DNA of 64,000 bases from Rutstroemia sp. NJR-2017a BVV2 (Eukaryota > Ascomycota > Leotiomycetes > Helotiales > Rutstroemiaceae), in contig NJPS01000076.1 in NCBI GenBank assembly GCA_002946415.1, positions 1,178,001 through 1,242,000 on the forward strand. The letters are read 5' to 3'. Every line of letters begins with the position of its first letter. The first letter of the stretch is position 1. The translations under genes were made by a program, and so were the position numbers. Under the pieces are notes generated by a model. The model was given only the letters and a program-made list of their open reading frames with translations, was not told the DNA's origin and made no database searches. Shown here one piece after another: positions 9,506-58,760 of the stretch.

Positions 9506-10050
9506 TCACCGACGGCGGTGAATGCAAGTAGCTTTCAGATACAGTTGATATATATAATACCCTTGAGACCGCTATACTTAAGAGGTACGCTCTACTTTTA
9601 TTCCTCTTCTACACGCAGAAGACTGTGCGAAATGTGATTCCGTAGTATGTCAGTCACTTGCGGCGGGTCAACTGAATGTCATGCTCTGGCCAATTGATTC
9701 TAACATTTGGACCTTACACTGTCCTGTTCTACGTATGGTCATTCTTGAATGTCAATAGTTTGGATACAATTCGGTTCTCGAAGGGTTATTTTCACAGTCC
9801 CTGAGACTCCAATGCGAAAAGAGACGCAGCTAGTTTGAATCTCATTGCTTTAACATGAAAAACTACTCTGTTGACCCAGTTGAGAAGACAATTTGAAGCC
9901 AGTAGAATAACTGGATCAGGTCAACGGGTCCGCCACTGCAAGTGGGATTACCGCTCAGCAACTGTTCTACCTCACTGGCGCCAGCACCATTTAAGCGGAA
10001 AGCATTGAAATTTGGAACCCATAACCCTAGAAATTACATACATCGTTTGA
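9506..10050. other. Intergenic, convergent 3' ends
   Basis: Between the regulator stop and the stop of the minus-strand disordered protein. No gene or repeat recognised. The plus-strand open frame starting at 9942 overlaps the minus-strand gene and is read as its shadow. Confidence 0.5.
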
Positions 10051-30052: not shown

Positions 30053-32484
30053 ATGGCGCATATGATGTATTCCCAACATCATGCGACGATGGCTCCTCCG
30101 CAAAAACCAGAAACCTTCATGCTGAGCAGTGAAGCACAACAAAGTCTTCCTCAAGATGCTCAAGTAGCCCTCCAACAAGTTGACAACTGTAAGTACAACT
30201 GATACCACCAACACCTTTTTATTTAGCATTGCTGACCCTCGCTTTAGTAAAATACTTTTTAATATCTGCTCCCGTTGACTGGACACCCGACCAATACATT
30301 CGACGATTCCTTTTACCAACAGGCGAATATGTCTCTTGTGTATTATGGTATGGCTACGCGCAATATTGAATATGTTCTGCGGCGATTCTAACAATGGTGT
30401 AGGAATAACCTCTTTCACATCTCCGGCACAGATATCGTAAGATGTCTGTCGTTTCGATTCCAAGCCTTCGGTCGCCCGGTTAAGAACTCGAAGAAATTTG
30501 AAGAAGGTATCTTCTCGGATCTGCGAAACTTGAAATCTGGCACCGATGCCTCACTCGAAGAGCCAAAGAGTGGTTTCCTTGACTTCCTGTACAAGAACAA
30601 CTGCATTCGAACACAAAAGAAGCAGAAGGTTTTCTACTGGTATAGTGTCCCACACGACAGACTTTTCCTCGATGCGCTTGAGCGCGACCTGAAGAGGGAG
30701 AAGATGGGACAGGAGGCAACGACCGTGGCTGTCAATGAGCCAGCGCTGTCTTTCGAATTCGACTCGTCGCAATCGTTATTCGAGCAACTCACCAAGGCCC
30801 AACAAGCGAACTCCTCATCCTTCTCCGCTCAGCAACCATCATACTCTCAATCGCAATCTCAGTCGACATCCCCAGTGATGCGAGCAATGGACTCCATGCC
30901 TCCTCCGCAAATGATCCCACAAGCAATGGCCATGCCAGAAGAAATGAACCAAATGGCCGCTTACCAACAAATGACCATGCAACAACCACAAATGCAACAA
31001 CAGCATGTTGTCAAGAGGGAACCTGATTTCGGACGCGTTCAATACAATCAAAATGGTGTGCCGATCTCACAAACACACCAGCGACACGCTTCCATGCCCG
31101 CGTATGGATTGGAATACTCTCCTGCACCATCATTTGTCTCATCGCACTACGAAGATTACAGCGCTCGTGGCATCTCGTTTGAACCTATCACCCCTCCTCA
31201 ACAAGCTTTGGGCATGGGTGCTGAACCAGCATACATTGCCAATGAAGAGACTGGTCTTTACACGGCTATTCCAGACCACATGGGTGGTGTCAATGGTCTC
31301 CACACAATGATGCAGTTGCCTCCGTCAAACTTGTCCGGACCTCAATTCTCGCATGCCGCCAGAGGATACCCATCAAACAACGTCTACTCTGTTATTGAAG
31401 GATCACCAACCTACAAGCAGAGAAGACGCCGCTCTTCCATTCCTCCTGGAGTTGCCTCAATTGTGGCGGCTGCTACAGCTGCTGGACAACACGCTCATCA
31501 AGCTCACCGACCTTCAGATTTGAGAAGATCGATCTCTACATCTGTCGGGCCTGTGGCTGAAGGTGATGAGTCTGGTGACAACTCCCCACCTGGACTTACC
31601 TACAGCAACCAGATCAACCAGATATCGCAACATCACAAGGATCTCCTTGAACTCTCCAGACATGGCACCCCTCTCTCAACTGTCGAGGACAGCCCTCACA
31701 TGAACCCATTGTCTTTGCAGCAAACTGATTTCCAGTTGAACAATGACGATCTTTCAGGTGATAGTCCACTTGATCATTCCCCTCAACGACGACACATGCA
31801 AGGACCTAGTGGAGTAGTCCGAAGAGCACGAAGTGCCACAATGATGGAACTTGGCCCTTACCCACAAAAGTCTCACTCCTGCCCAATCCCCACTTGCGGT
31901 CGTTTGTTCAAGCGTTTAGAACATCTCAAACGGTATGTTTCTACTTTTCTTTGTCATATAATTTTATTTGTCCGGCTGTAGTAGATCAGGCCGCTGACTT
32001 AACCCCTCCTCCTAGACATGTGAGAACACATACACAAGAGAGACCCTACATCTGCCCACATTGTAGCAAAGCATTCTCCCGCTCCGACAACCTAGCACAG
32101 TATGTTATACATTTTTTTGATTTACAATCCCCACACAACATGAATTCAGCAAAGCACACAACACACTCAGCAAATTGTGTCAACTCGACAATTTTCGGTC
32201 ATATACTAACTTTAATTTCTAGACATCGCCGCACACATGACCGTGGTGACGGATCAGAAGGTGCCTATGGCAGCTACAGTGGTGAAGAAGAAGAATACGA
32301 GGGTGAAGATCACCTTGGACCCCTCGAAGATGCTTCTCCCAATTCCGAAAATGGCTACCTTCCTCAAAACATGACTTCGAATTTCGGTGGAATGCCGAAC
32401 ATGTCTATGGGAATGGTTGGTTCTGGTATGGCTGCCCCCAGTCAGCTTATCAACACACAGCAACTCATGCAGCAACAAATATAG
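30053..32484 (+). CDS. ste12: Ste12-like homeodomain/C2H2 transcription factor
   Basis: Nuclear factor at the end of the Fus3/Kss1-type MAP-kinase cascade that controls mating, invasive growth and, in plant pathogens, penetration. Five exons: 30053-30188, 30248-30347, 30403-31932, 32016-32099, 32223-32484; 703 aa. The STE DNA-binding domain occupies about residues 45-160 (LKYFLISAPVDWTPDQ, RRFLLPTGEYVSCVLW, then NNLFHISGTDIVRCL and FLYKNNCIRTQKKQKVFYWY). The centre is Gln/Met/Ser-rich. Two C2H2 fingers close the protein at about 570-621: CPIPTC...HLKRH, split by intron 3, and CPHC...LAQHRRTH, split by intron 4. Finger-bearing Ste12 is the filamentous-fungal form; budding-yeast Ste12 lacks them. 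Exon 4 is 84 nt, a multiple of three, so it can be skipped in frame. The RRRRSSIPPG region is a plausible MAP-kinase contact area by analogy. Confidence 0.95.
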
Positions 32485-33750
32485 AGTTCAATTCAAACTC
32501 CGCATCTACGACGCCATGAAATAAGCCTTTTTTTCGACCTCGGATCTTCACCACTTAGTCGCTTTTGACACATTCTATACCTCACACCCACCTTGTATAT
32601 GACCTTTTTAGTCTTCTTCGGATTTTTTTTCACTTTCGTTTCCTTTACTGCATAGCCTTGCGAATTCTATTGTACGTTAGACATCGTTGCTGGCTCGCTG
32701 CAACCTATGTTCATAGGGCTGCTTTCCTATTATCATCTTTTAGTTATATTTTTTATGGTTTCTCTAGGCGCTACGGCCCCTTTTCTGTCTTTGATTCGGG
32801 ATTGATGATCGTCATGATGGATTATTTTCTTTTACGAAGAACAAAAAGGTACTTCCTGTCTGTGGGCAGGGTTTGGACTCTGGGGAAAATGGGAATGTCT
32901 ATACCTTGGAACTTGGGACGCGGTGGCAAAGGCCAGAAAACAACACTTTTCGAGATCAATGTTCTTGATCTTGGTGTGGAGTTCTTTATGGAAATGTGTG
33001 TGCGTGTGGATATATGTATGTTTGTTGGGTTAGGTTAGGCTGGACTGATTTTTTACGATCAGTGTGCTCTCTATCTTAGATGATGGGGCAAGATAGGTCG
33101 AGCACCTGGTTCTTGTAGCTGGGTTTTTTTCTCTCTTTGGGTGGCAGGTTTTTGATACTTGATCTAAAAAATCGGGCGGAGTGTTAGGGTTAGGGATGGG
33201 AGGATGAAGGAAGGGAAGGAGTGCAATTCTCCTTGTGTACAATCAGAAAATTTTCGGTGTTTCTTAGTATATGTGTGTGCTTTATGTGGTTGGTTGTTGT
33301 CTGATTTGGAAAGTGCTTTTGGGATGAATGGTGGATGGATGCGGTGGGAAAATGAAGATGAAGATGATGGAGGAGGAGATTACAGACAGATGAACAGACA
33401 GAGAGAAATATAGACTGCATTATACCCAAGATCTTGGTTTCATGATTGATTGATCGATTGTTGCTACTGCTTTGATGGTGATTTTGTGGTGATGATTTAG
33501 GGTGACGGGTTTAGGTGACGAATTTTAGGTGCAGTGGAGAGGTGAGTGAAAGAGCTAGCTAGTTAGTCTACGGTGCTATGGACAGTATGAGTGAGGCTTA
33601 GGGTGGAGGTGGGAGTTGAGTGCGGTGAGGCTTCTGTATCTACCCTATCTGCTTGATGGTGTGAAGAAAAGGATGGAGGGGGGGGAGGCGCATAGATGGA
33701 TGAGGGAGGTGAGAGATGGGGCTGAGGGGGCTGAGGGGATTGGGGTCATT

Positions 33751-33776
33751 GGGGGGGGGGGGGGGGGGGTGGGGGG

Positions 33777-33810
<34 letters not shown>

Positions 33811-33838
33811 GGGGGGGGAGGAGATTGGGTGTGGAGGA
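33751..33838 (+). repeat. Long poly-G tract
   Basis: Nearly pure G on the plus strand: runs of 19, 8, 30 and 8 G separated by single T or A bases. Such tracts can form G-quadruplexes and are hard to sequence, so the run lengths, and any frame through them, are uncertain. Confidence 0.9.
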
Positions 33839-34001
33839 GGGGAGAGGGGGGGAGAGGAAAGTGGAGAGGGAGAGGGAGAGGAAAAGTGCGGAGAGGTTGC
33901 GGGATGATGGGGGGGAGGGGGAGGAGGACGAGTCGATCCCGGAGAGTATTCTTCCCAGGAGGGTCGAGGCTGATTATGAGGCCGAGGCGAGGGAGAATGG
34001 G

Positions 34002-34049
34002 TATGCGGTGCAGGAGGGGTATGGATATGCGGTGCAGGAGGGGTATGGG
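34002..34049 (+). repeat. Two-copy 24-bp tandem repeat in a G-rich open frame
   Basis: Two 24-nt units differing at one base; in the frame that ends at 34094 they encode YAVQEGYG twice. The surrounding frame (33825-34094) has a protein-like C-terminus (IPESILPRRVEADYEAEAREN) but no safe start because it runs into the poly-G tract. Confidence 0.75.
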
Positions 34050-36094
34050 TATGGGGAGAGAGGGGGGAGGCAGAGGGATGGGTATTTTGGGTAGGGATGG
34101 GTGGGGGAAAAGTGATGATTAATAAATACTCGGAAGTAGATCGAAGTATTGATCACCAAAAGTACATCACTTGATGTTCGCGTTCTATCTTATAGCCATC
34201 TCAACTGCATAACGCTGTGCGTTTACTTCAGTTCAGTACTTTATGTTTGATCGAGCATTCCTAAATACCTCTTCTGCTTTATTCTTTATACTCTTCGCTT
34301 CGATTCGATTCTTGCGTTGCATAGTTAGTCAATCTGTAACTACTGTACCGGCTGTAGTCAGTCCAGTCTGACCTTTCTCTTACCGAGAGTTGTGCTGAAT
34401 CTTTTGCCTTTGCGGATATATAAATATCGATTCAAGCTTCTTCGAGATTGGAGTTCGGCATAGCGTGCGTGTGTGCGTGCGGGGGTTGGAGTTGGTGTTA
34501 TATATATATTTCTGGGGGCATAAGGGGGGCTCTATTATTTGGTTTTATTTTGGTTGAGATGGATGGGTAGTTTTGAGAGGAAGGAAGAATGGTAGAATGA
34601 AAGAAATATTGTTTTTGAGAAAGGAAGAATGATAGAGGGAAAGAATGAAAGAATGTTTATGAGAGAAGCAGAGAATGATATGTTAAGCAAAATTGAACTG
34701 AATTTAATTGAATGGGTCGTTTTTCTTCTCGGAAGCAGTCGCGAGTCTTGATGGAACTGTCCTGAAGTGCTCGGCCTGGCTGCTGGTAAAAGTTGACTTC
34801 GGTATCGTGCGTGGTGCTTTTCTTTGGGGTAGAGTATTTTGAGGTGTATTTGCTCGCCGAAGGAGAGGCGAATGGGGGGGCGAGGGCGAGGGGTGGGAGA
34901 GGTGGAAGGGGAGAAGGCGCGGTGGGTATAATTGTGGTTTGGATAAGGGGATAAAGAAAGTAAAGTACTTGCGTTCGATATCAGTTGAGAAGAATTGGAT
35001 GAGCTATTGCTTTGGTCCGTAGGGTTCAGTAAGTGCGGTGGGTGCGGTGGGTGCGGTGGGTATAGATGATCGGAGTGAGGCTGCTTTGAAGCGAGATGGT
35101 AGGTAGGTACGTAGGAAGGGAGGGAGAGGGGAGGATGAGGGATGGAAGTATATGAATGAGGAAGGATTGTTCAGAGAAGGAAAATAACAGCCCTGGAGAA
35201 CGCCTATACTTCGTAGATTCAATACGCACTCGCCGTTGGGAACCAAGTCCTCGCTGTTCAGCGCACTAACGGGCTACGCGTCGCGTCCGTTCGTCCGGCA
35301 AAAGTCAACTCAACTGGAGGGCAAAGATCTCCGGGGCATCTGGGGTTTGGGCTATCTCTTCTTATTCCACGACTAGTGGGATATTTGGGGTAGAAAGCTT
35401 TCTTTATGTTTGATGTGGTGTTGGTTGGTCGGTGGGGGTTGTGATGGATAGATGAGATGGGCGTTCGGATAAGGTTGATTGACGCTCTTTAGCGTGTGAA
35501 CTCTAACTCCGTCTGTATTTTTGCGCAACGGGACATGGGATCCGATCAGATTAAATTCGGGATACTCTTTCTTCGTTTTACTTTTCTGGTTCGAGATATA
35601 TTTGAGGTTGGGAGATGGTGGTGGAAAAGGAATGCTTGTTAAGTTGGGACATGCACGATTTTGTCGAGACAGCGGGGAGGGGGGCAAAGCGGGGTTTGCA
35701 GATACAGTATTGGCCAAGCAGGCACCCAGATTGGACTGACCGGTATCGACGTGACATCCAGCGCAGGATAACTATTTGTCTTCATTATCTGAGTTACCGG
35801 AAGATGGCGTTAAATCTGGAGAGAACTGAAATGGAAGGCTTCCGTTTATGGAAGCAACCCTACATATCCCACGTGACCCCGTCGTACACCCCGCACCCAA
35901 CTTCTACCCAACGACACCTCTTCGGTACAGAAATAACAGGCCGATAAAAATACTCAAAAGACATTCAGACAACGAAAATATTACAATCTCTCAGAGCCTT
36001 TCGGATCTTCATTTGATAATAACAACCAGCCATAGTATATTGTCCCAAACCGGGCTTTTTCTTCTGCCCTAGACAGCCTACCTCTGCACGAGCA

Positions 36095-39000
36095 ATGTCC
36101 TTCGGCTTCTCAGTAGGCGACTTTCTTGCAGTAGCGTCACTAATAAATGAGGTTATAGTCAGTCTCAAAGATGCAGGCGGCGCCGCGGCGGATTACCAGC
36201 AGCTAATCGTGGAGCTCCATGGACTTCAGCGGGCGCTAGACAGCATTGAAAATCTTCGCGTTGATGCAGGCACACCACAAGCAGAAAATATCAATAATTT
36301 GAAGGTCACGGCGCTTGGCTGTCGATATGTGTTGGAGGAGGCTCTAAAAAAGCTTAGATCTTATGAGAGTTTGAAGTTGGGTCAGAAGAGCAGTTCTTTA
36401 GGTGAGTGGCAGTGTGACGAAGAATTCTTGCTTATTTCCTTGATCTCTAGGTCTCCAAGTTAGGAATATTCATTGTAGCACTATGGGGCATAGGGGTTCT
36501 CGGGACTTGTAGAGCTACATCAAATTTTCAATGTATGAGAAACGTGCGAAGAATGAATACTGATATCCCGCCCTTGATACTAGTTGCAGTGTCTGGCAAG
36601 AAGATCAAATGGCAAATCATGATGAAGGAAGATGTGGATGCACTGAGAACTCGCCTGAATTCTCACACGAACTACTTGAATATGAGGCTTTCAACCGAAA
36701 TATTGTATGTCAACGAGTCAAAGACTATTCTTGGATTGCAGGCTGCTTACTCTACATATCTAGACGAGGCACATGTGCTGCAACTGCTCGAGCCGATAAA
36801 AGTCTCGGGGTCGTTACTCAAAAGCTCGAAGAAACTCGTCTGGACGTTCAAGGAATGCGGTTCGACTTAGAAGAGAATAAAGTGGGGGAAATTCTTGATT
36901 GGGTCTCACCACTGAGGATGTACGATAAGCAGCAGGATACCTTCTCTCGACACCAAGAGGAGACAGGAGGTTGGCTCTTGGAGACGCCGGAATTCGTCAG
37001 GTGGCTAGAAAACCAGAGCTCGAGTGCAATACTCTGGTGTCCAGGGCATCGTAAGTCACTCATACAGTCATATTGACCGGATAGCTGGCAGATACTGATA
37101 TTAGACAGCCGGCGCTGGTAAGACTGTCATGAGGTATGTGCTCGCCGTACTACTCGGAGTAGTACCGTACTAGTACGGCGGTAAACGAGTAGTCCACTCC
37201 TTTACCGCCTCGGATTCTTAGCTGATGCTTGTTAGCTCCATGGTGGTCAATCATATCCAAACGAACTTCCAGAGCCACAATGTCGGGGTGGCATTCTTCT
37301 ATTGCGATTACAAACAGAGCCCGACTGCCTTCAACATACTGTCCAGTATAGCTAGACAACTAGCTGAAAAGGGGCAAGGTCTCGGAATACTCCCTAAGCT
37401 CTACAAGGAGCATAACAACGGCAGCAGTAAGTTGTTATTCGAAGAGCTTCGGACTATTTTAGTAGCTCTCTGTGGAGCATATGATCAAGTCTACATTCTT
37501 GTTGATGCACTTGATGAGTGTCCTCTTACTGAAGAAAGGACACTCGTCCTTGATACGCTAAAAAGGATACCACAGCTGTCTGTCAGAACCTTGATCACAA
37601 GCCGACCGAATTTTGAGGATATCAACTCAGCACTAGTAGCAGATCCTCAGATCGAGATTATTGCACGAGATGTCGATATTAAATCATATTTGAGGCACAG
37701 GATCAGAGGAAATCCTGCGTTTTTGAAGCGAATAGCTAAGGATGATTTGGAAGAACAAATCATCGATGAAATTACGAATCGAGCTTGTGGGATGTACGTA
37801 TTACTGGCTATTTGACCTTGAATATGCTGTGCTCGGCATGGTCTCATCATTCTGACGATTCAATCATTTAGGTACCTTATGGCGGTTCTCCAGATTGAAC
37901 GAATCTTGACTGAACGTACACCAGCCAAGATTCGTAAAGCGCTTCAAACACTCCCGTCAAAACTAGAAGCGAACTATCAAGACACACTTGAACGAATCAG
38001 GAAACAGGCCGAACCTGATAATGAATATGGCATACGAATCCTTCAATGGGTCTCAACGTCTCAGCGACCCCTGGGTGTCAAAGAACTCTCTTTAGCATTA
38101 TCCATCGAGTGGAGCGATGATGAAGAGCTACCGCATTCTATTGATCCGGAAAATGAACCAGATCCCGACAGTATTGTAGATGTTTGTGGCGGGCTTGTTA
38201 TTATTGAGCCCTCCAGCCAAGAAGTCCGACTTGTACACTTCACAGTCCAGGAGTTCTTTAGCAGAAATTCATTGGTGCTCCCAGATGCTCACCACGAGAT
38301 ATTTAAGACTTGTCTTCTATATCTGAGCTTTGATGATGTTAGTAAACAATTGGAAGATTCTTTCGATCGCGGTTGCAAAGAGGGATACAAAACCTATAGA
38401 TATCTCTTGGCCCAAGACATTACTGAACGTGCTCGAATGCCTCACCGAACACGCAAGAAAGAGAGTATATTGGATCTTGAAGGGCGTTTGCCCCTCTTTA
38501 ACTACGCAGCCTGCTTCTATCTCTCCCACGCTCCAAAATCGTCCCTTCGGCCAAGTCTGGCGAAGCTCTTCACCCTCTTGTTCAAGTCTCGGCGCATGAT
38601 GATAGCATATTCTATTGCGCACCATCACTTGGGGCTTCATTATTATCTCACACCCGACTCTGAGCTCACTGGCTTACATGTCCTCGCCACCTTAGGGGCT
38701 CCAGCGCTAGCCTCACTCTATCTCGAGATCTACCCCGGCGTGGATCCCGCAAACAAGAGCGGAAGAACGCCTCTGCATTTCGCGACGGTAGCAAAACAGC
38801 TCCCAATGATGTCTTATCTCATCTCCAATGGCGCGGACGTAAACACACAAGACGTAAACGGCATAACGCCATTATTTCTCGCTGTGGGGACTATTTTCGT
38901 CCGCGGCGTAGAGCTTCTTCTCGCAAACGGCGCCGACGTCAACAAGAATGCCGGAAGGGATTTCCTCGGCAGCCAGACCGCGCTCCATATTGCCGCGAAG

Positions 39001-39318
39001 TGCGGAAATGAGCACTTTGTCAAACTCCTGCTGGAGAGGGGTGCGGATGTCGAGCGGAAGACGAATCTTGGTTTTACGCCGCTGCTGGATGCTGTTAATA
39101 AACGTCATGTGGGTATCGTGAAAATACTACTTCAAGCGGGGGCGAGAGCAGATGTGAAGGATATTGCGGGGAGGTCGGCGCTCTTGTGGGCACGATTTGC
39201 TGCTACTAGTAGTCCGGAAACTGAAGAGAACGAAAAGAACGAAAAGAGCGATGAGGGCGATGCCATCATTGAACTTCTTCTTGAAGCTAGGGCTTCGACA
39301 AACGGAGAGCAGGATTAG
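36095..39318 (+). CDS. NLR-like STAND protein: N-terminal helical domain, NACHT, ankyrin repeats
   Basis: Fungal NOD-like receptor, a family tied to heterokaryon incompatibility and non-self recognition. Six exons: 36095-36401, 36584-36704, 36764-37050, 37109-37133, 37236-37793, 37872-39318; 914 aa. Residues 1-150 (MSFGFSVGDFLAVASLINEV...) look like the alpha-helical N-terminal domain of fungal STAND proteins; the exact subtype is unsure. NACHT: Walker A GHPGAGKT at about 237-244, built across introns 3 and 4 by a 25-nt exon; Walker B YILVDALDE near 333-341; a sensor-like LITSRP follows. A winged-helix part (RILQWVSTSQRPLGVKELSLAL) comes next. Four to five ankyrin repeats fill about 700-880 (SGRTPLHFATVAKQ, NGITPLFLAVG, QTALHIAAKCGNE, LGFTPLLDAVNKRHV, AGRSALLWA). 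Exons 2-4 are short and were placed from frame and splice signals, so the least certain part is residues 95-250. Confidence 0.85.
37143..37209. repeat. Series of inverted repeats inside NLR intron 4
   Basis: Within the 102-nt intron (37134-37235): GTACTACTC (37147-37155) pairs with GAGTAGTAC (37157-37165); CCGTACTAGTACGG (37165-37178) is a perfect palindrome; CGCCGTACTA (37143) pairs with TAGTACGGCG (37171); GGCGGTAAA (37177) pairs with TTTACCGCC (37201), with an inner GAGT/ACTC stem. Most of the intron can therefore fold on itself. Confidence 0.85.
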
Positions 39319-46949: not shown

Positions 46950-53106
<6,157 letters not shown>

Positions 53107-53730: not shown

Positions 53731-54901
53731 CTATTGTCCCTTCGCAGCCTTAGCTTTCTTAGCAGCAATCTGGGCCTCGGTGTGATGCGGTTCACGTTCC
53801 TCAACAACTACATCACGCTGCCCCTTAGCAGCCTTGGCCTTCTTAGCAGCGATCTGGGCTTCGGTGTGATGGGGTTCGCGCTCCTCGATTTCGACGTCAC
53901 GTTGACCCTTGGCTGCCTTTGCTTTCTTTGCGGCGATTTGAGCTTCGGTGTGGTGGGGTTCACGTTCTTCAATTTCGACATCGCGTTGACCTTTAGCAGC
54001 CTTTGCTTTCTTGGCAGCGATCTGAGCTTCGGTGTGGTGAGGCTCACGTTCTTCAATCTCGACGTCGCGTTGGCCCTTAGCAGCCTTAGCTTTCTTGGCA
54101 GCGATTTGAGCCTCAGTGTGATGCGGCTCACGCTCTTCAAGCTCGATATCACGTTGACCCTTAGCTGCCTTAGCTTTCTTGGCGGCGATTTGAGCTTCAG
54201 TGTGGTGTGGCTCTCTCTCCTCTACGTCACGCTGGCCCTTTGCTGCTTTAGCTTTCTTGGCAGCGATTTGAGCCTCAGTGTGGTGAGGCTCGCGCTCCTC
54301 AACGTCGCGTTGACCCTTGGCAGCTTTCGCTTTCTTGGCGGCAATTTGAGCTTCGGTATGGTGAGGCTCACGTTCCTCAACATCGCGTTGACCCTTTGCC
54401 GCCTTGGCTTTCTTTGCAGCAATCTGAGCTTCGGTGTGATGAGGTTCCCTCTCTTCAACATCACGCTGACCTTTGGCTGCCTTGGCCTTCTTGGCGGCGA
54501 TCTGGGCTTCGGTGTGGTGAGGTTCTCTCTCCTCTACATCACGCTGACCTTTGGCGGCCTTTGCCTTCTTAGCAGCGATTTGAGCTTCGGTATGATGAGG
54601 TTCCCTCTCTTCAACATCACGTTGACCCTTTGCTGCCTTTGCTTTCTTAGCGGCGATCTGGGCCTCAGTGTGATGACGCGTGATAAGAGCTGGGATATCA
54701 CGAGCCAATTTTGCGGCGATGTTGGAAGGCTATTATATGTTAGTTCCGTACCTGGGAAATGTGTCCGGAATGTAAACATACAATTGATTTCTTTTCGAGA
54801 GATGCAGCGCCAAACTCAGCGGGGAGAGCAAGAGCGGTGGCCAAGGGACCGAAGAAAAGTAGGCCCAAAGTGACCATACTCTTAAGGGATGGAGTGTACA
54901 T
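53731..54901 (-). CDS. Secreted tandem-repeat polyprotein; candidate RiPP/Kex2-type peptide precursor
   Basis: Two exons, 54782-54901 and 53731-54729, over a 52-nt GT-AG intron; 372 aa. Residues 1-21 (MYTPSLKSMVTLGLLFFGPL) form a clear signal peptide, then a short pro-region containing EKKS. Residues 59-372 are 12 copies of the 18-mer HHTEAQIAAKKAKAAKGQ, identical in all 12. Eleven spacers separate them: RDVEEREP six times in the N-terminal half, then RDIELEEREP, three RDVEIEEREP and RDVVVEEREP. The repeat is basic (five Lys), Ala-rich and able to form an amphipathic helix, with acidic spacers, as in propeptides that mask cationic peptides. There is no Lys-Arg or Arg-Arg site; one Lys-Lys sits in each repeat and single Arg flank the spacers. 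Codons vary freely between copies while the protein does not. The gene is divergent to a UstYa-family gene, which suggests a modified-peptide precursor. It could instead be a structural or antimicrobial secreted repeat protein. Confidence 0.85.
53734..54675 (-). repeat. Coding minisatellite, 12 units of 78 or 84 bp
   Basis: Six 78-bp spacer-plus-repeat units, five 84-bp units and one 54-bp first repeat without a full spacer. The longer units all lie in the 3' half of the gene (lower coordinates) and differ by a two-codon insertion in the spacer. Third codon positions differ widely between copies. Confidence 0.92.
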
Positions 54902-55986
54902 GATGAAGGTTAGGGTGGTAGAGAATGATTGGACGAAAAATATCAAATGTAAAGTTCAAAAGAGGGAAAACTGGCCGGCAGTAACGAATGGAAAGTAAGG
55001 AATGGAAGGAAAGCTCGTGTGAGAAATGGTGTGATGATGAATGAAATAAAATGGAGAAAGTATGAGAATGTTAGAGGGACTTTATACATACCAAGCCCCT
55101 AGGTAGACAAAATGTACCACTTTTCCTGATGACATCGGTATATTGGGGTCGCTGTCTCGTCGACCGGACATGTTGTGATACTTCTTTCAGGGATGTGAGA
55201 CGAGCTGTGAATGATACTCGCGTGTGATGGTTGCGGATAGATGCATCCTGATTCCATTATCATAGAATGCGCATGGTCTCGGTGGTGGGAGAATGGCCAT
55301 ATCAAGGGTACCTGTCAAGTATCAAACGTCGGTAGCTCCCAGAGGAAATCCGCAAGATCAGACGGAGGAGGTTGAGCGTCGAGGCATTAATCATCGCGAG
55401 GCTGACCCGATGAGATGGAAAGAATAGCCTTGATGGGTCTGTATGCAGATTGACTTTCAATTCGCTCGTATTTCTCTCCCGTTTCCATTTCCCTCCCAGG
55501 TTCCCCATACTCCATCCAAATGATCCCGCCAAGATGTGTCATGTGCAACCCAAAACCTAGCGTGTGTTATGGACTCCAAGCAACTACCGATAGCGCCACT
55601 GAAAATAGGCTTGTGGGGAAATTATAGGCTGTACCTACCATGCTTATTTTAACCGACCCTGTTCCCTTTTCCTGCGTTTGATCCTCAAACATCACAATGT
55701 TCGGACGATACGAGTTTCTCTATGCGCGGACAGTCGTCGCCGACCGGACCTTCTTGAAAGAGACTTAGTATTGATTTAATTACTCTTTCCATCTGGACTT
55801 GCTTGTTATCATCGCGAGTAGCTGTGTTTTGTTGAACCTTCTCTTCGTTCCTTCATCGCTGGTCGTGTTGTTTCCTATTCTACCTTCATTTCGTTCACGC
55901 TGCTGGTCAAGCCACTTTTGCATATTAGATACCCTCTTTAATCATTATCCCAATCCGAATAGTAGAGCTTTGGAAAGACCGCAGCA
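54902..55986. promoter_or_regulatory. Shared divergent promoter region of the peptide precursor and UstYa-like gene 1
   Basis: 1085 bp between two divergent start codons, with only short open frames. A shared control region is inferred from the arrangement; no regulator site was identified. Confidence 0.5.
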
Positions 55987-56976
55987 ATGCCAGCAAAGTA
56001 TAAGAGAGTTATCGGTGACGAAAAGTTCATCGACGTGTCACCCGGCCGAACATCTGCAGAGAGCACAGATTCGACATTATTAGAGTATGAAGAAGGAGCG
56101 GCCGAAGTATCATCAACAACGAGGCGACAGTACGATAACAGGTGGATGTGGTTGGTACATGCGGTGCTGTTATCATTCTCATTTGGCCTGTTTACATCGG
56201 CATATTTCACGAGGGTATCGACACTGAGACATGTACAGGAGTTCTCAGCGTGGTGTAAGTCATCTTCACTGTCTATGGAAAACGGAAAAACTAACCATTT
56301 CGATAGCACCGGCTGCAAAAGCAGTAGAATATGAAAGAGTGAAGTTCAATAATACGATGGGAACTGGATCACCATATGTTGGATATGGCCCGGAAGTGGA
56401 CCGAGCATGGAGAGCCATTTCTTACGATGGTAATTTCTTTCATCTGATAGTCTCCACTGCAGTGCATTCTAACTCTTAAACAGTCGGCGATCAAATGATC
56501 ACACCAGATAAACTGGACGTAATTGGCATGCCCGACACGCATCTCAAAGTCAAGGACCCAAAAACTGGCGTTGAAGGCTACCGAGTTGGGTTAGAAGTAT
56601 TCCACCAACTTCACTGCATCAATCTCCTCCGCCAAGTCACATATAGAGATTGGTATGAGGATATCAGTGGGGAGTTCAAGGAAGGCGCGGAAGGTCTACG
56701 GATGCATACAGGTATTGTCCCCGTTTCCTCACCATGGTAATCAAATTACTGACAAACCAATTTACAGATCACTGTCTAGAGATTTTACGTATGAATGTTC
56801 AATGCAACGCCGACGTAGGGGTCTTCACATTATATATGCTGGAAGGAGATCCAGCTCCATGGCCTGAGTTGAACTCATGGCACGTGTGCAGGAATTTCGA
56901 CGCAGTCCTAGACTGGGCGATGGAGAATTCGATTGGAATTATGGAGAAGCATGAAAATAATACCATTAGTCGATAG
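55987..56976 (+). CDS. UstYa-family (DUF3328) oxidase 1
   Basis: Four exons: 55987-56254, 56307-56429, 56484-56711, 56768-56976 (introns 52-56 nt); 275 aa, usual for the family. UstYa-type proteins are membrane-anchored oxidases that cyclise or oxidise peptides in fungal RiPP pathways (ustiloxin, phomopsin, asperipin) and also act on some other metabolites. Visible here: a cytosolic N-terminus, a single membrane anchor at about 52-72 (WMWLVHAVLLSFSFGLFTSAYF), a family-like GYGPEVDRAWRAI segment, and both HxxHC motifs, HQLHC at 171-175 and HTDHC at 205-209. Between them is the usual YRDWYED. The C-terminal part is rich in Trp and acidic residues (WPELNSWHVCRNFD). It lies divergent to the repeat-peptide gene and 749 bp upstream of a second family member on the same strand. 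Function follows from the family; the substrate is inferred from neighbours. Confidence 0.9.
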
Positions 56977-57725
56977 CGCATCATGATTTTGTACATAAAT
57001 AGAATCTACATAGGAACCCACCTTCCATTATTCGAACACTCCTCGCAAAACTCCCATCAATTCTACTTCATCAATGTTAGTAATCCCACGCGTGCATCAA
57101 AATCACCCCCCCCCAACCCCTACCCCTTTCCCGCTTAGCCCCACTTCCCCAACGAATCACATCACCCGCATCGCGTTTGAGAAGACGAGCCGCTAACCAA
57201 CCTTACCCAACCCCCAGCTGTTTTACATCAGATAAACTCTGTGCGAAATGCAACGTGCTGTAACCAGATCAATTCAACCGGCAGCATCTTGCGCTCCCGG
57301 CATGCAGAAAGTCGTGCCGATATCTGATGTCTCAAGCTAGACGCTTGGTTTCGGAAGATGATGATCGCATTGCCCATCGTGATGGTATATTGGCAAGATG
57401 GGATGGGATAGCTGGGATGCGTGAAACTGTCAAGATTAAGGATACCAAGGACGGGTGTGGCGGCGATGGGGTAGCCTGAGTGGTGTGTGCTCTGTTTCGT
57501 ACCTTTTTCTACTGCTGTGGCATTTTTGTATACTGTTCGATATCCTCGCGAGCAATTGATTTGTTCTCTATTCATTCTTTTCTACACAGCGGAGACAGGT
57601 TCTCGTTAGTACGTGTGCCGGGTCACCTTCTTTTTTAAAATTCAGTGTATACAATTATTATTATTTTTTTCTAAAGACTGTTGCGGCTGTTACTCGTTCA
57701 CATCTCCAGTCTCACAACCGCCATC
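56977..57725. other. Spacer between the two UstYa-like genes
   Basis: About 750 bp with C-rich runs near 57105-57125 and a T-rich stretch just before the next gene (57635-57675). Presumed terminator of gene 1 and promoter of gene 2; nothing else seen. Confidence 0.5.
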
Positions 57726-58760
57726 ATGTCTCCCAAGAAAGAATCCTCAACCTACACGCCCCTCTCCGATATAGAAGATGTCGACCTTGAGAACGACTCC
57801 GACACGACTCTGGGCTCCAATCGATTTCCTTCTACATCTCCCAAACCCACATCTAGACGGCGCTCCCAACATACATCACCAAGAACCGCAAGAATAGAAT
57901 GTCTTCTCGTCTGGGTACGCTGGGGATCTGTAATTACTCTGCAAAGTCTGATATTATTTTTCTTGCTGAAAGAGAAGAAAAAGGAAGTGCGTGATGGCGA
58001 TGAAAGCTGGGGTCTGGCGGATACAGAAACGGGCGGTGACATTAATGGGCTTTATGTTCCTCGTGAGTCTTGACCATTCTTCCTTGATTGATGGGAAGGA
58101 ATATATGCTGATTTTTCCATTTTAGAATCACATAAATGGACGCTCCTCAAGCCAGAAGAATCCATATTCGTGCCGAATATGACGAGTAATGATGATCGGA
58201 TGGATATTAGACATAATTGGGACATGTTGATGCCATGTAAGTAATTATTCTTGGAATGTTATGGGCGAGGATAAATGCTGATGATTTGTAGTGGGAAGTG
58301 GTACCGTGAAGATCCCGGACTACGAGCAGCATCCAATGTTGGGGAAGCCCATCGTGGATGATCCCATTCGGTCTGGTCCAATTTTTGAAGCATCGTGGAC
58401 TCATGCACTGCACTGTGTAAGTTTTTTTCTTACGTCCCTGGATTATTTCCTCGCTCCAGTTCGCCCCGCTGACCATATTCTCAGCTGTACTACACAGTCG
58501 ATACCTACCACCAACTGGTGATCTCGAACGGCACCACATTTGGTTTCGACGGCGAGCGGAATGATATGCATGCCTCGCATTGCTTTGAGTATTTGCGCAA
58601 CCAGATATTATGTATGGCAGATATGACTTTAGAAGGAAGTGAAAGCGTGCTAGATGCGACTGGTGAGGGGCAGGCACATGTTTGTAGGAATAGGCAGGAG
58701 GCAATTGAGTGGATTGAAGGGAGGAGGGTTGATGATATCCAGAGTATTGTTGGACCTTAA
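57726..58760 (+). CDS. UstYa-family (DUF3328) oxidase 2
   Basis: Four exons: 57726-58062, 58126-58236, 58292-58416, 58485-58760 (introns 55-68 nt); 282 aa. The ATG at 57726 (MSPKKESSTY) follows the only plausible leader. An acidic, then Ser/Arg-rich cytosolic N-terminus of about 60 residues precedes the membrane anchor (VRWGSVITLQSLILFFLL). The catalytic part has both HxxHC motifs, HALHC at 187-191 (last codon is the end of exon 3) and HASHC at 220-224 (ASHCFEYLRNQILC). Between them lies a Tyr-rich LYYTVDTYHQL. It differs strongly from oxidase 1, so the pair is not a recent duplicate; two distinct UstYa proteins are also found in ustiloxin-type clusters (UstYa and UstYb). The C-terminus has the Arg/Glu-rich RNRQEAIEWIEGRR. 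Confidence 0.87.

What the first reader, a model, noticed from the sequence alone, without database searches (positions are those of the whole stretch)
53731..58760. Candidate undescribed fungal RiPP locus: repeat-peptide precursor with two UstYa-family oxidases
Seen: a signal-peptide protein with 12 identical repeats lies head-to-head with a gene encoding a membrane-anchored protein with two HxxHC motifs (HQLHC, HTDHC), and a second such gene (HALHC, HASHC) follows on the same strand. Known: repeat precursors plus UstYa/UstYb oxidases define the dikaritin-type RiPP clusters (ustiloxin, phomopsin, asperipin, epichloecyclin). Inference: this locus makes a modified peptide. The 18-residue repeat differs from the known cores named above (YAIG of ustiloxin, for example) and is longer, so the product would be new.
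Basis: partly seen in the sequence, partly recalled or inferred. Interest (0 to 1): 0.92.

Follow-up and report, generated by a model that had tools for sequence, protein, structure and literature searches.

The report
Fungal di-histidine repeat-peptide oxidase cluster
A fungus related to Rutstroemia carries a gene for a secreted-type protein built of twelve identical small peptides next to two peptide-oxidase genes; this type of cluster was already catalogued in fungi without a known product, but its cutting sites predict a peptide that begins with two histidines, which can be tested directly.

Summary
A two-exon gene (54901-53731, minus) encodes 372 aa with 12 identical HHTEAQIAAKKAKAAKGQ units, head-to-head with a UstYa-family gene (55987-56976); a second follows (57726-58760). 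Both exceed Pfam's UstYa cut-off. 'Undescribed' is only partly right. Relatives of the precursor occur in four ascomycete classes, and 9 of 15 on long contigs share a contig with a relative of one or both oxidases. Genera, di-His motif and neighbours match published KEP type G-3 (Umemura 2020: 64 proteins, 20 genera, 57 near DUF3328), product unknown. Added here: (1) in 150 of 151 HHTE units the residues back to the preceding Arg are whole XA/XP dipeptides or none, the Ste13 trimming signature of alpha-pheromones, against 0 of 45 before the other repeat type; the mature peptide should begin His-His. (2) 21 of 24 precursors also carry a Trp unit; it is absent from this gene and its two nearest relatives while the oxidases are kept, so the His-His unit is the likelier substrate. 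(3) The repeats here hold no Tyr or Trp, so Tyr-ether dikaritin chemistry cannot apply. Cutting, modification and role are inferred, not shown.

The parts
53731..54901 (-). Repeat precursor gene, 372 aa; exons 54901-54782 and 54729-53731
   Evidence: Spliced reading and 12 exact 18-aa units; 23 relatives
53734..54676 (-). Tandem array of the 12 HHTEAQIAAKKAKAAKGQ units with spacers RDVEEREP (6), RDVEIEEREP (3), RDIELEEREP (1), RDVVVEEREP (1)
   Evidence: Tandem Repeats Finder; unit and spacer list
54902..55986 (.). Intergenic stretch between the divergent start codons, a possible shared promoter (inference from position only)
   Evidence: Gene models
55987..56976 (+). UstYa-family oxidase A, 275 aa, exons 55987-56254, 56307-56429, 56484-56711, 56768-56976; HQLHC and HTDHC
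   Evidence: Gene model; PF11807 185.7 bits; 96% to a Rutstroemia sp. protein
57726..58760 (+). UstYa-family oxidase B, 282 aa, four exons starting 57726, 58126, 58292, 58485; HALHC and HASHC
   Evidence: Gene model; PF11807 59.3 bits; 96% to a Rutstroemia sp. protein

Best explanation
A three-gene cluster of the published KEP type G-3. The precursor enters the secretory pathway (inferred from its start). A Kex2-type protease cuts after Arg, a Ste13-type dipeptidyl aminopeptidase removes whole XA/XP dipeptides and Kex1 removes the C-terminal basic residue, so that one precursor gives up to twelve copies of HHTEAQIAAKKAKAAKGQ with a free His-His start (inferred from sequence, strong). The two UstYa proteins, anchored in the same secretory membranes, oxidise the near-invariant HHTEAQIAAK part (inferred, moderate). 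The sameness of the peptide across four fungal classes fits a shared signalling or metal-handling role better than a fast-changing toxin (inferred, weak).
For: All 12 units identical in protein while 17 silent sites vary. Spacer rule met by 150 of 151 HHTE units in 24 proteins, 20 distinct spacer strings besides the empty one, against 0 of 45 DEFGPW units in the same proteins. Positions 5-10 of the unit are constant in 145-151 of 151. Oxidase neighbours: 9 of 15 precursors on contigs of 20 kb or more share a contig length with an A or B hit, several with neighbouring locus tags. Umemura counts 57 of 64 G-3 genes near DUF3328. The genome has a Kex2-type hit and a DPP-IV-type gene. Trp unit lost, oxidases kept.
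Against: I saw the dipeptide pattern in the sequences before I tested it. Units in one protein are related, so 151 is not 151 independent cases. The window's spacers hold only single Arg, not the usual KR or RR. Xylogone and Scytalidium have their best A hit on another contig than the precursor, and 6 of 15 long-contig precursors showed no partner. No expression, peptide or enzyme data were available. No Tyr or Trp, the usual target of studied UstYa cross-linking.
Confidence: 0.6

Rival explanations
1. The product is a linear, unmodified pheromone-like signal; the UstYa proteins act on something else.
For: Ste13-type spacers are the mark of alpha-pheromone precursors (PMC6339444 passages), which are not modified further; no Tyr or Trp in the repeats.
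Against: Oxidase genes recur beside the precursor in several genera, while Umemura found 100% of yeast mating factors and 98.6% of fungal pheromones without DUF3328 neighbours. The sequence has no Cys pair or PYGxPxG core of ascomycete pheromones.
Confidence: 0.22
2. Kex2 cuts at the KK inside each unit, so the product is the short HHTEAQIAA, and the Ala/Lys tail is discarded.
For: KK is a known lesser Kex2 site (PMC6339444 passage); conservation falls after residue 10.
Against: Residue 11 is Glu in 101 of 151 units, so the KK pair is not a feature of the family; single-Arg sites precede units in many relatives too.
Confidence: 0.1
3. The repeat protein is a structural or surface protein that is not cut to peptides, or a surface-active one like Rep1.
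For: Secreted repeat proteins of this kind exist (Rep1, PMC9769878 passage).
Against: Exact XA/XP spacer parity has no reason in an uncut protein, and differs between the two repeat types of the same proteins.
Confidence: 0.08

Closest known systems
KEP type G-3 (#6), Umemura 2020, PMC7329392
   Same: Di-His motif, DUF3328 neighbours (57 of 64), ascomycete genera including Rutstroemia; 6 of my 10 named precursor genera are in its list, none in the list of G-8, the other di-His type
   Different: I could not see its logo figure or sequence table, so identity is by genera, motif and neighbours; the window form lacks the Trp unit of most relatives and uses single-Arg spacers
Dikaritin RiPPs (ustiloxin, phomopsin, asperipin-2a, victorin)
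   Same: Secreted-type repeat precursor beside UstYa-family genes
   Different: No Tyr or Trp in the repeat; Ste13-type spacers, which Le Marquer 2019 says are not predicted for ustiloxin and phomopsin precursors (passage); no tyrosinase, S41 peptidase or methyltransferase among the 20 ORFs scanned
Ascomycete alpha-pheromone precursors
   Same: Repeats after a basic site and XA/XP dipeptides
   Different: Unrelated peptide; oxidase neighbours
Basidiomycete pheromone-like KEPs
   Same: Ste13-type dipeptides, and Umemura reports 17 of 76 with DUF3328 neighbours (passage), so the combination is not new in itself
   Different: Other peptides, other phylum
Noursin, a bacterial His-cross-linked copper-binding lanthipeptide (PMC10206099, abstract only)
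   Same: Precedent only: a modified His peptide can bind copper
   Different: Unrelated enzymes, sequence and organism

Membership tests
KEP (Kex2-processed repeat protein) | Signal peptide | tested here: inconclusive
   By inspection of residues 1-26 only; no predictor run
KEP (Kex2-processed repeat protein) | Several near-identical peptide repeats | tested here: met
   12 identical units
KEP (Kex2-processed repeat protein) | Dibasic KR, RR or KK sites between repeats | tested here: inconclusive
   Spacers of the window hold single Arg only; KK lies inside each unit. In the 24 proteins 85 of 151 units follow KR or RR
KEP type G-3 | Di-His motif, DUF3328 neighbour, listed genera | tested here: met
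KEP type G-3 | Match to the type's own sequence profile | not testable with these tools
   Figure 5 and Table S2 are not held
Dikaritin RiPP | UstYa-family oxidase beside the precursor, with both HxxHC motifs | tested here: met
   motif residues invariant or nearly so in 32 A and 28 B proteins
Dikaritin RiPP | Tyr-bearing core that can be ether-cyclised | tested here: not met
   One Tyr in the whole protein, at residue 2; no Trp
Dikaritin RiPP | Modified or cyclic peptide product | not testable with these tools
   Needs mass spectrometry
Alpha-pheromone precursor | XA/XP (Ste13) dipeptides between basic site and peptide | tested here: met
   11 of 12 units after R-EP, the first directly after R; 150 of 151 in the family
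Alpha-pheromone precursor | Peptide like known pheromones (two Cys, or PYGxPxG) | tested here: not met
   The unit has no Cys, Tyr, Pro or Trp; pheromone features from PMC6339444 passages

The most novel reading that the evidence does not exclude
UstYa oxidases act here on a Tyr- and Trp-free peptide whose free His-His start is set by Ste13-type trimming, installing a His-centred or backbone modification; the product is a conserved copper-binding or signalling molecule shared by at least four classes of ascomycetes, a pheromone-like branch of fungal RiPPs rather than a toxin.
Probability: 0.25. Interest if true: 0.82.

Novelty: new variant of a known kind. Interest (0 to 1): 0.55.

Why it matters
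Among the types of Umemura's Table 2 whose genes mostly lie near DUF3328, G-3 spans the most genera (20), and no product was named in what I read. The spacer parity gives an exact predicted start and hence exact masses to look for. The lineage that lost the Trp unit but kept the oxidases says which repeat to examine. If true, it would extend UstYa chemistry beyond Tyr-type cores and join pheromone-style trimming to RiPP oxidation.

Tried and rejected
Structure: models of close orthologues of A and B (P0024, P0095) were weak (mean pLDDT 63.0 and 64.3). They put a confident helix at the presumed membrane anchor and the two motifs of each protein on two successive helices. Foldseek of the A model against PDB gave no match at E 0.001 or below (B was not searched), and no solved relative of A was found by sequence (best E 0.42; none). 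No claim on fold or metal site is made.

Other repeat precursors near other UstYa loci of this genome: a script over fetched loci L001-L049 found only this one, but it is uninformative. Flanks were about 1.5 kb, and the loci fetched with this cluster's own oxidase A (L034, L035) did not show the repeats either.

Trp unit elsewhere in the genome: one search found nothing, but its composite query failed to find even this window's own HH units, so it shows nothing. No second gene of the HH type was found: one search hit only this gene, on contig C74 and again on C50.

Literature: HHTEAQ, HTEAQIAAK, TEAQIAAKEA, DEFGPW and EFGSWV occur in 0 papers of the held open-access library; sequences printed in figures or supplements would be missed. 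UstYa with copper listed nothing on UstYa enzymes that I judged relevant by title. Papers on Sclerotinia, lichens, Trichoderma and Venturia (PMC6941272, PMC12048977, PMC7099791, PMC9632046; passages only) do not describe this peptide in the passages seen.

The DEFGPW unit does not follow the direct spacer rule (0 of 45). Allowing a Gln start fits 43 of 48, but that rule was made after seeing the failures.

Full report
What is there. On the minus strand a two-exon gene (54901-53731, intron 54781-54730) encodes 372 residues with 12 exact copies of HHTEAQIAAKKAKAAKGQ. The eleven spacers are RDVEEREP (6), RDVEIEEREP (3), RDIELEEREP (1) and RDVVVEEREP (1). Divergently, 55987-56976 and 57726-58760 each encode a four-exon protein with two HxxHC motifs, both UstYa (PF11807) at 185.7 and 59.3 bits, cut-off 25. 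In alignments of 32 A and 28 B proteins, H171, H174, C175 and H205 of A are invariant and H208 and C209 nearly so (one relative has a gap there); all six motif residues of B are invariant.

It is under selection. The 12 DNA units vary at 17 of 54 sites, all third codon positions, with 4 to 13 differences per pair and no amino acid change. At least 26 changes are needed, and 21.6% of random single changes would be silent.

Host. The best matches of A and B are proteins of Rutstroemia sp. NJR-2017a, strains BBW and WRK4, at 96% identity, so the window comes from a Rutstroemia relative (Helotiales, Rutstroemiaceae). The assembly has 43.4 Mb in 79 contigs.

Relatives. The protein search gave 23 precursors at E 0.001 or below; only the 7991 candidates sharing most words were scored (sequences). 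Thirteen of the 23 bear a species name, from 10 genera: Botryotinia, Ciborinia, Xylogone, Scytalidium, Talaromyces, Capronia, Fonsecaea, Varicellaria, Icmadophila and Trichoderma. Members of Leotiomycetes, Eurotiomycetes, Lecanoromycetes and Sordariomycetes were looked up. The search finds proteins that share exact words with the query, so it favours conserved ones.

Processing rule. For each HHTE unit in the 24 proteins (window plus 23) I read back to the nearest Arg. In 151 of 151 the stretch is even in length, and in 150 each second residue is Ala or Pro: 58 EP, 29 empty, 25 EA, 12 DP and longer ones such as DAVADPEAEA. The exception has no Arg upstream, so the read ran to the protein start; it still ends in EP. 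I noticed the pattern before testing it. The other repeat type of the same proteins serves as a control: 0 of 45 DEFGPW units meet the rule. Arg follows Lys or Arg in 85 of the 151 and another residue in the rest, one case having none. This is the logic of an endoprotease cut followed by Ste13 removal of dipeptides, described for alpha-pheromones (PMC6339444, passages) and seen by experiment for other KEPs (PMC9769878, passages). It predicts His-His as the start of the mature peptide. With a Gln start allowed, 43 of 48 D(E/D)FGPW units also fit, which would give a second product beginning with Gln or pyroglutamate; that rule came after the failure.

Conserved part. Positions 5 to 10 are A, Q, I, A, A, K in 150, 150, 150, 145, 151 and 151 of 151 units, and the tail varies from position 11 on. 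H1, H2 and E4 are fixed by the way units were picked. Measured to the next Arg, or to the protein end, with trailing basic residues removed, 123 of 151 segments are 18 to 22 residues long.

Lineage difference. The Trp unit (DEFGxW) is present in 21 of 24 precursors and absent from the window, Botryotinia narcissicola and Ciborinia camelliae, all Sclerotiniaceae or Rutstroemiaceae. The window keeps both oxidases with intact motifs; Ciborinia keeps A (69%); Botrytis tulipae has an A relative (78%) and B. cinerea B relatives (76% and 70%), though I saw no precursor of those two species. The simplest reading is loss of the Trp unit while the oxidases stayed for the HH unit.

Processing enzymes. 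The genome has one P_proprotein hit (Kex2-type) and a DPP-IV-type gene on two overlapping contigs. That does not show that they act here.

Literature. Umemura 2020 (PMC7329392; sections 6 and 7 read, other passages) lists G-3: 64 KEPs, 59 strains, 20 genera including Rutstroemia, 57 with DUF3328 within 15 genes, di-His motif. Six of my 10 named genera are in that list, none in that of G-8. The figure and the table of sequences were not seen. The paper also notes that pheromone genes almost never have such neighbours, but that 17 of 76 basidiomycete pheromone-like KEPs do.

Limits of the cluster. To the left lie two GH32 ORFs; to the right are ORFs without a Pfam match. Twenty of the 48 ORFs of at least 150 aa were scanned, besides the three proteins themselves; no tyrosinase, S41 peptidase or methyltransferase was among them. 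The unscanned ORFs could hold one.

Verdict. Real and intact, of a catalogued type whose chemistry I found nowhere described. Shown: anatomy, selection, family, spacer parity. Inferred: cutting, His-His start, oxidation of the HH unit, role. The copper idea rests on recalled peptide chemistry, with only a bacterial precedent seen in an abstract.

Noticed in passing
window 30200-35000: The window's contig C74 joins two other contigs of the same assembly: 200-base probes at 10000, 20000 and 30000 match C25, those from 35000 to 56000 match C50 in reverse. A 68-base G run (33751-33818) lies between. A misassembly or a structural variant; the peptide cluster itself lies on C50 as well.
   Followed up: partly
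G000:C34:1021121-1031909 and C58:584424-590629: Dense groups of UstYa-family hits; the genome has 79 UstYa matches (exon by exon, some duplicated).
   Followed up: no
window 36564-39315: NACHT-like (NPHP3_N) and ankyrin-repeat ORFs, possibly one gene of the fungal self-recognition kind.
   Followed up: no
window 49607-53103: Two adjacent GH32 ORFs (invertase or inulinase type) directly beside the precursor.
   Followed up: no
window 30392-31978: STE-type transcription factor ORF, about 22 kb from the precursor and possibly on the other side of the doubtful contig join.
   Followed up: no
proteins P0002, P0004-P0023: Most relatives encode a second peptide type, DEFGPWDSTEDEFGSWVD or close, which seems to begin with Gln after dipeptide trimming (43 of 48): one precursor, two different products.
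   Followed up: partly
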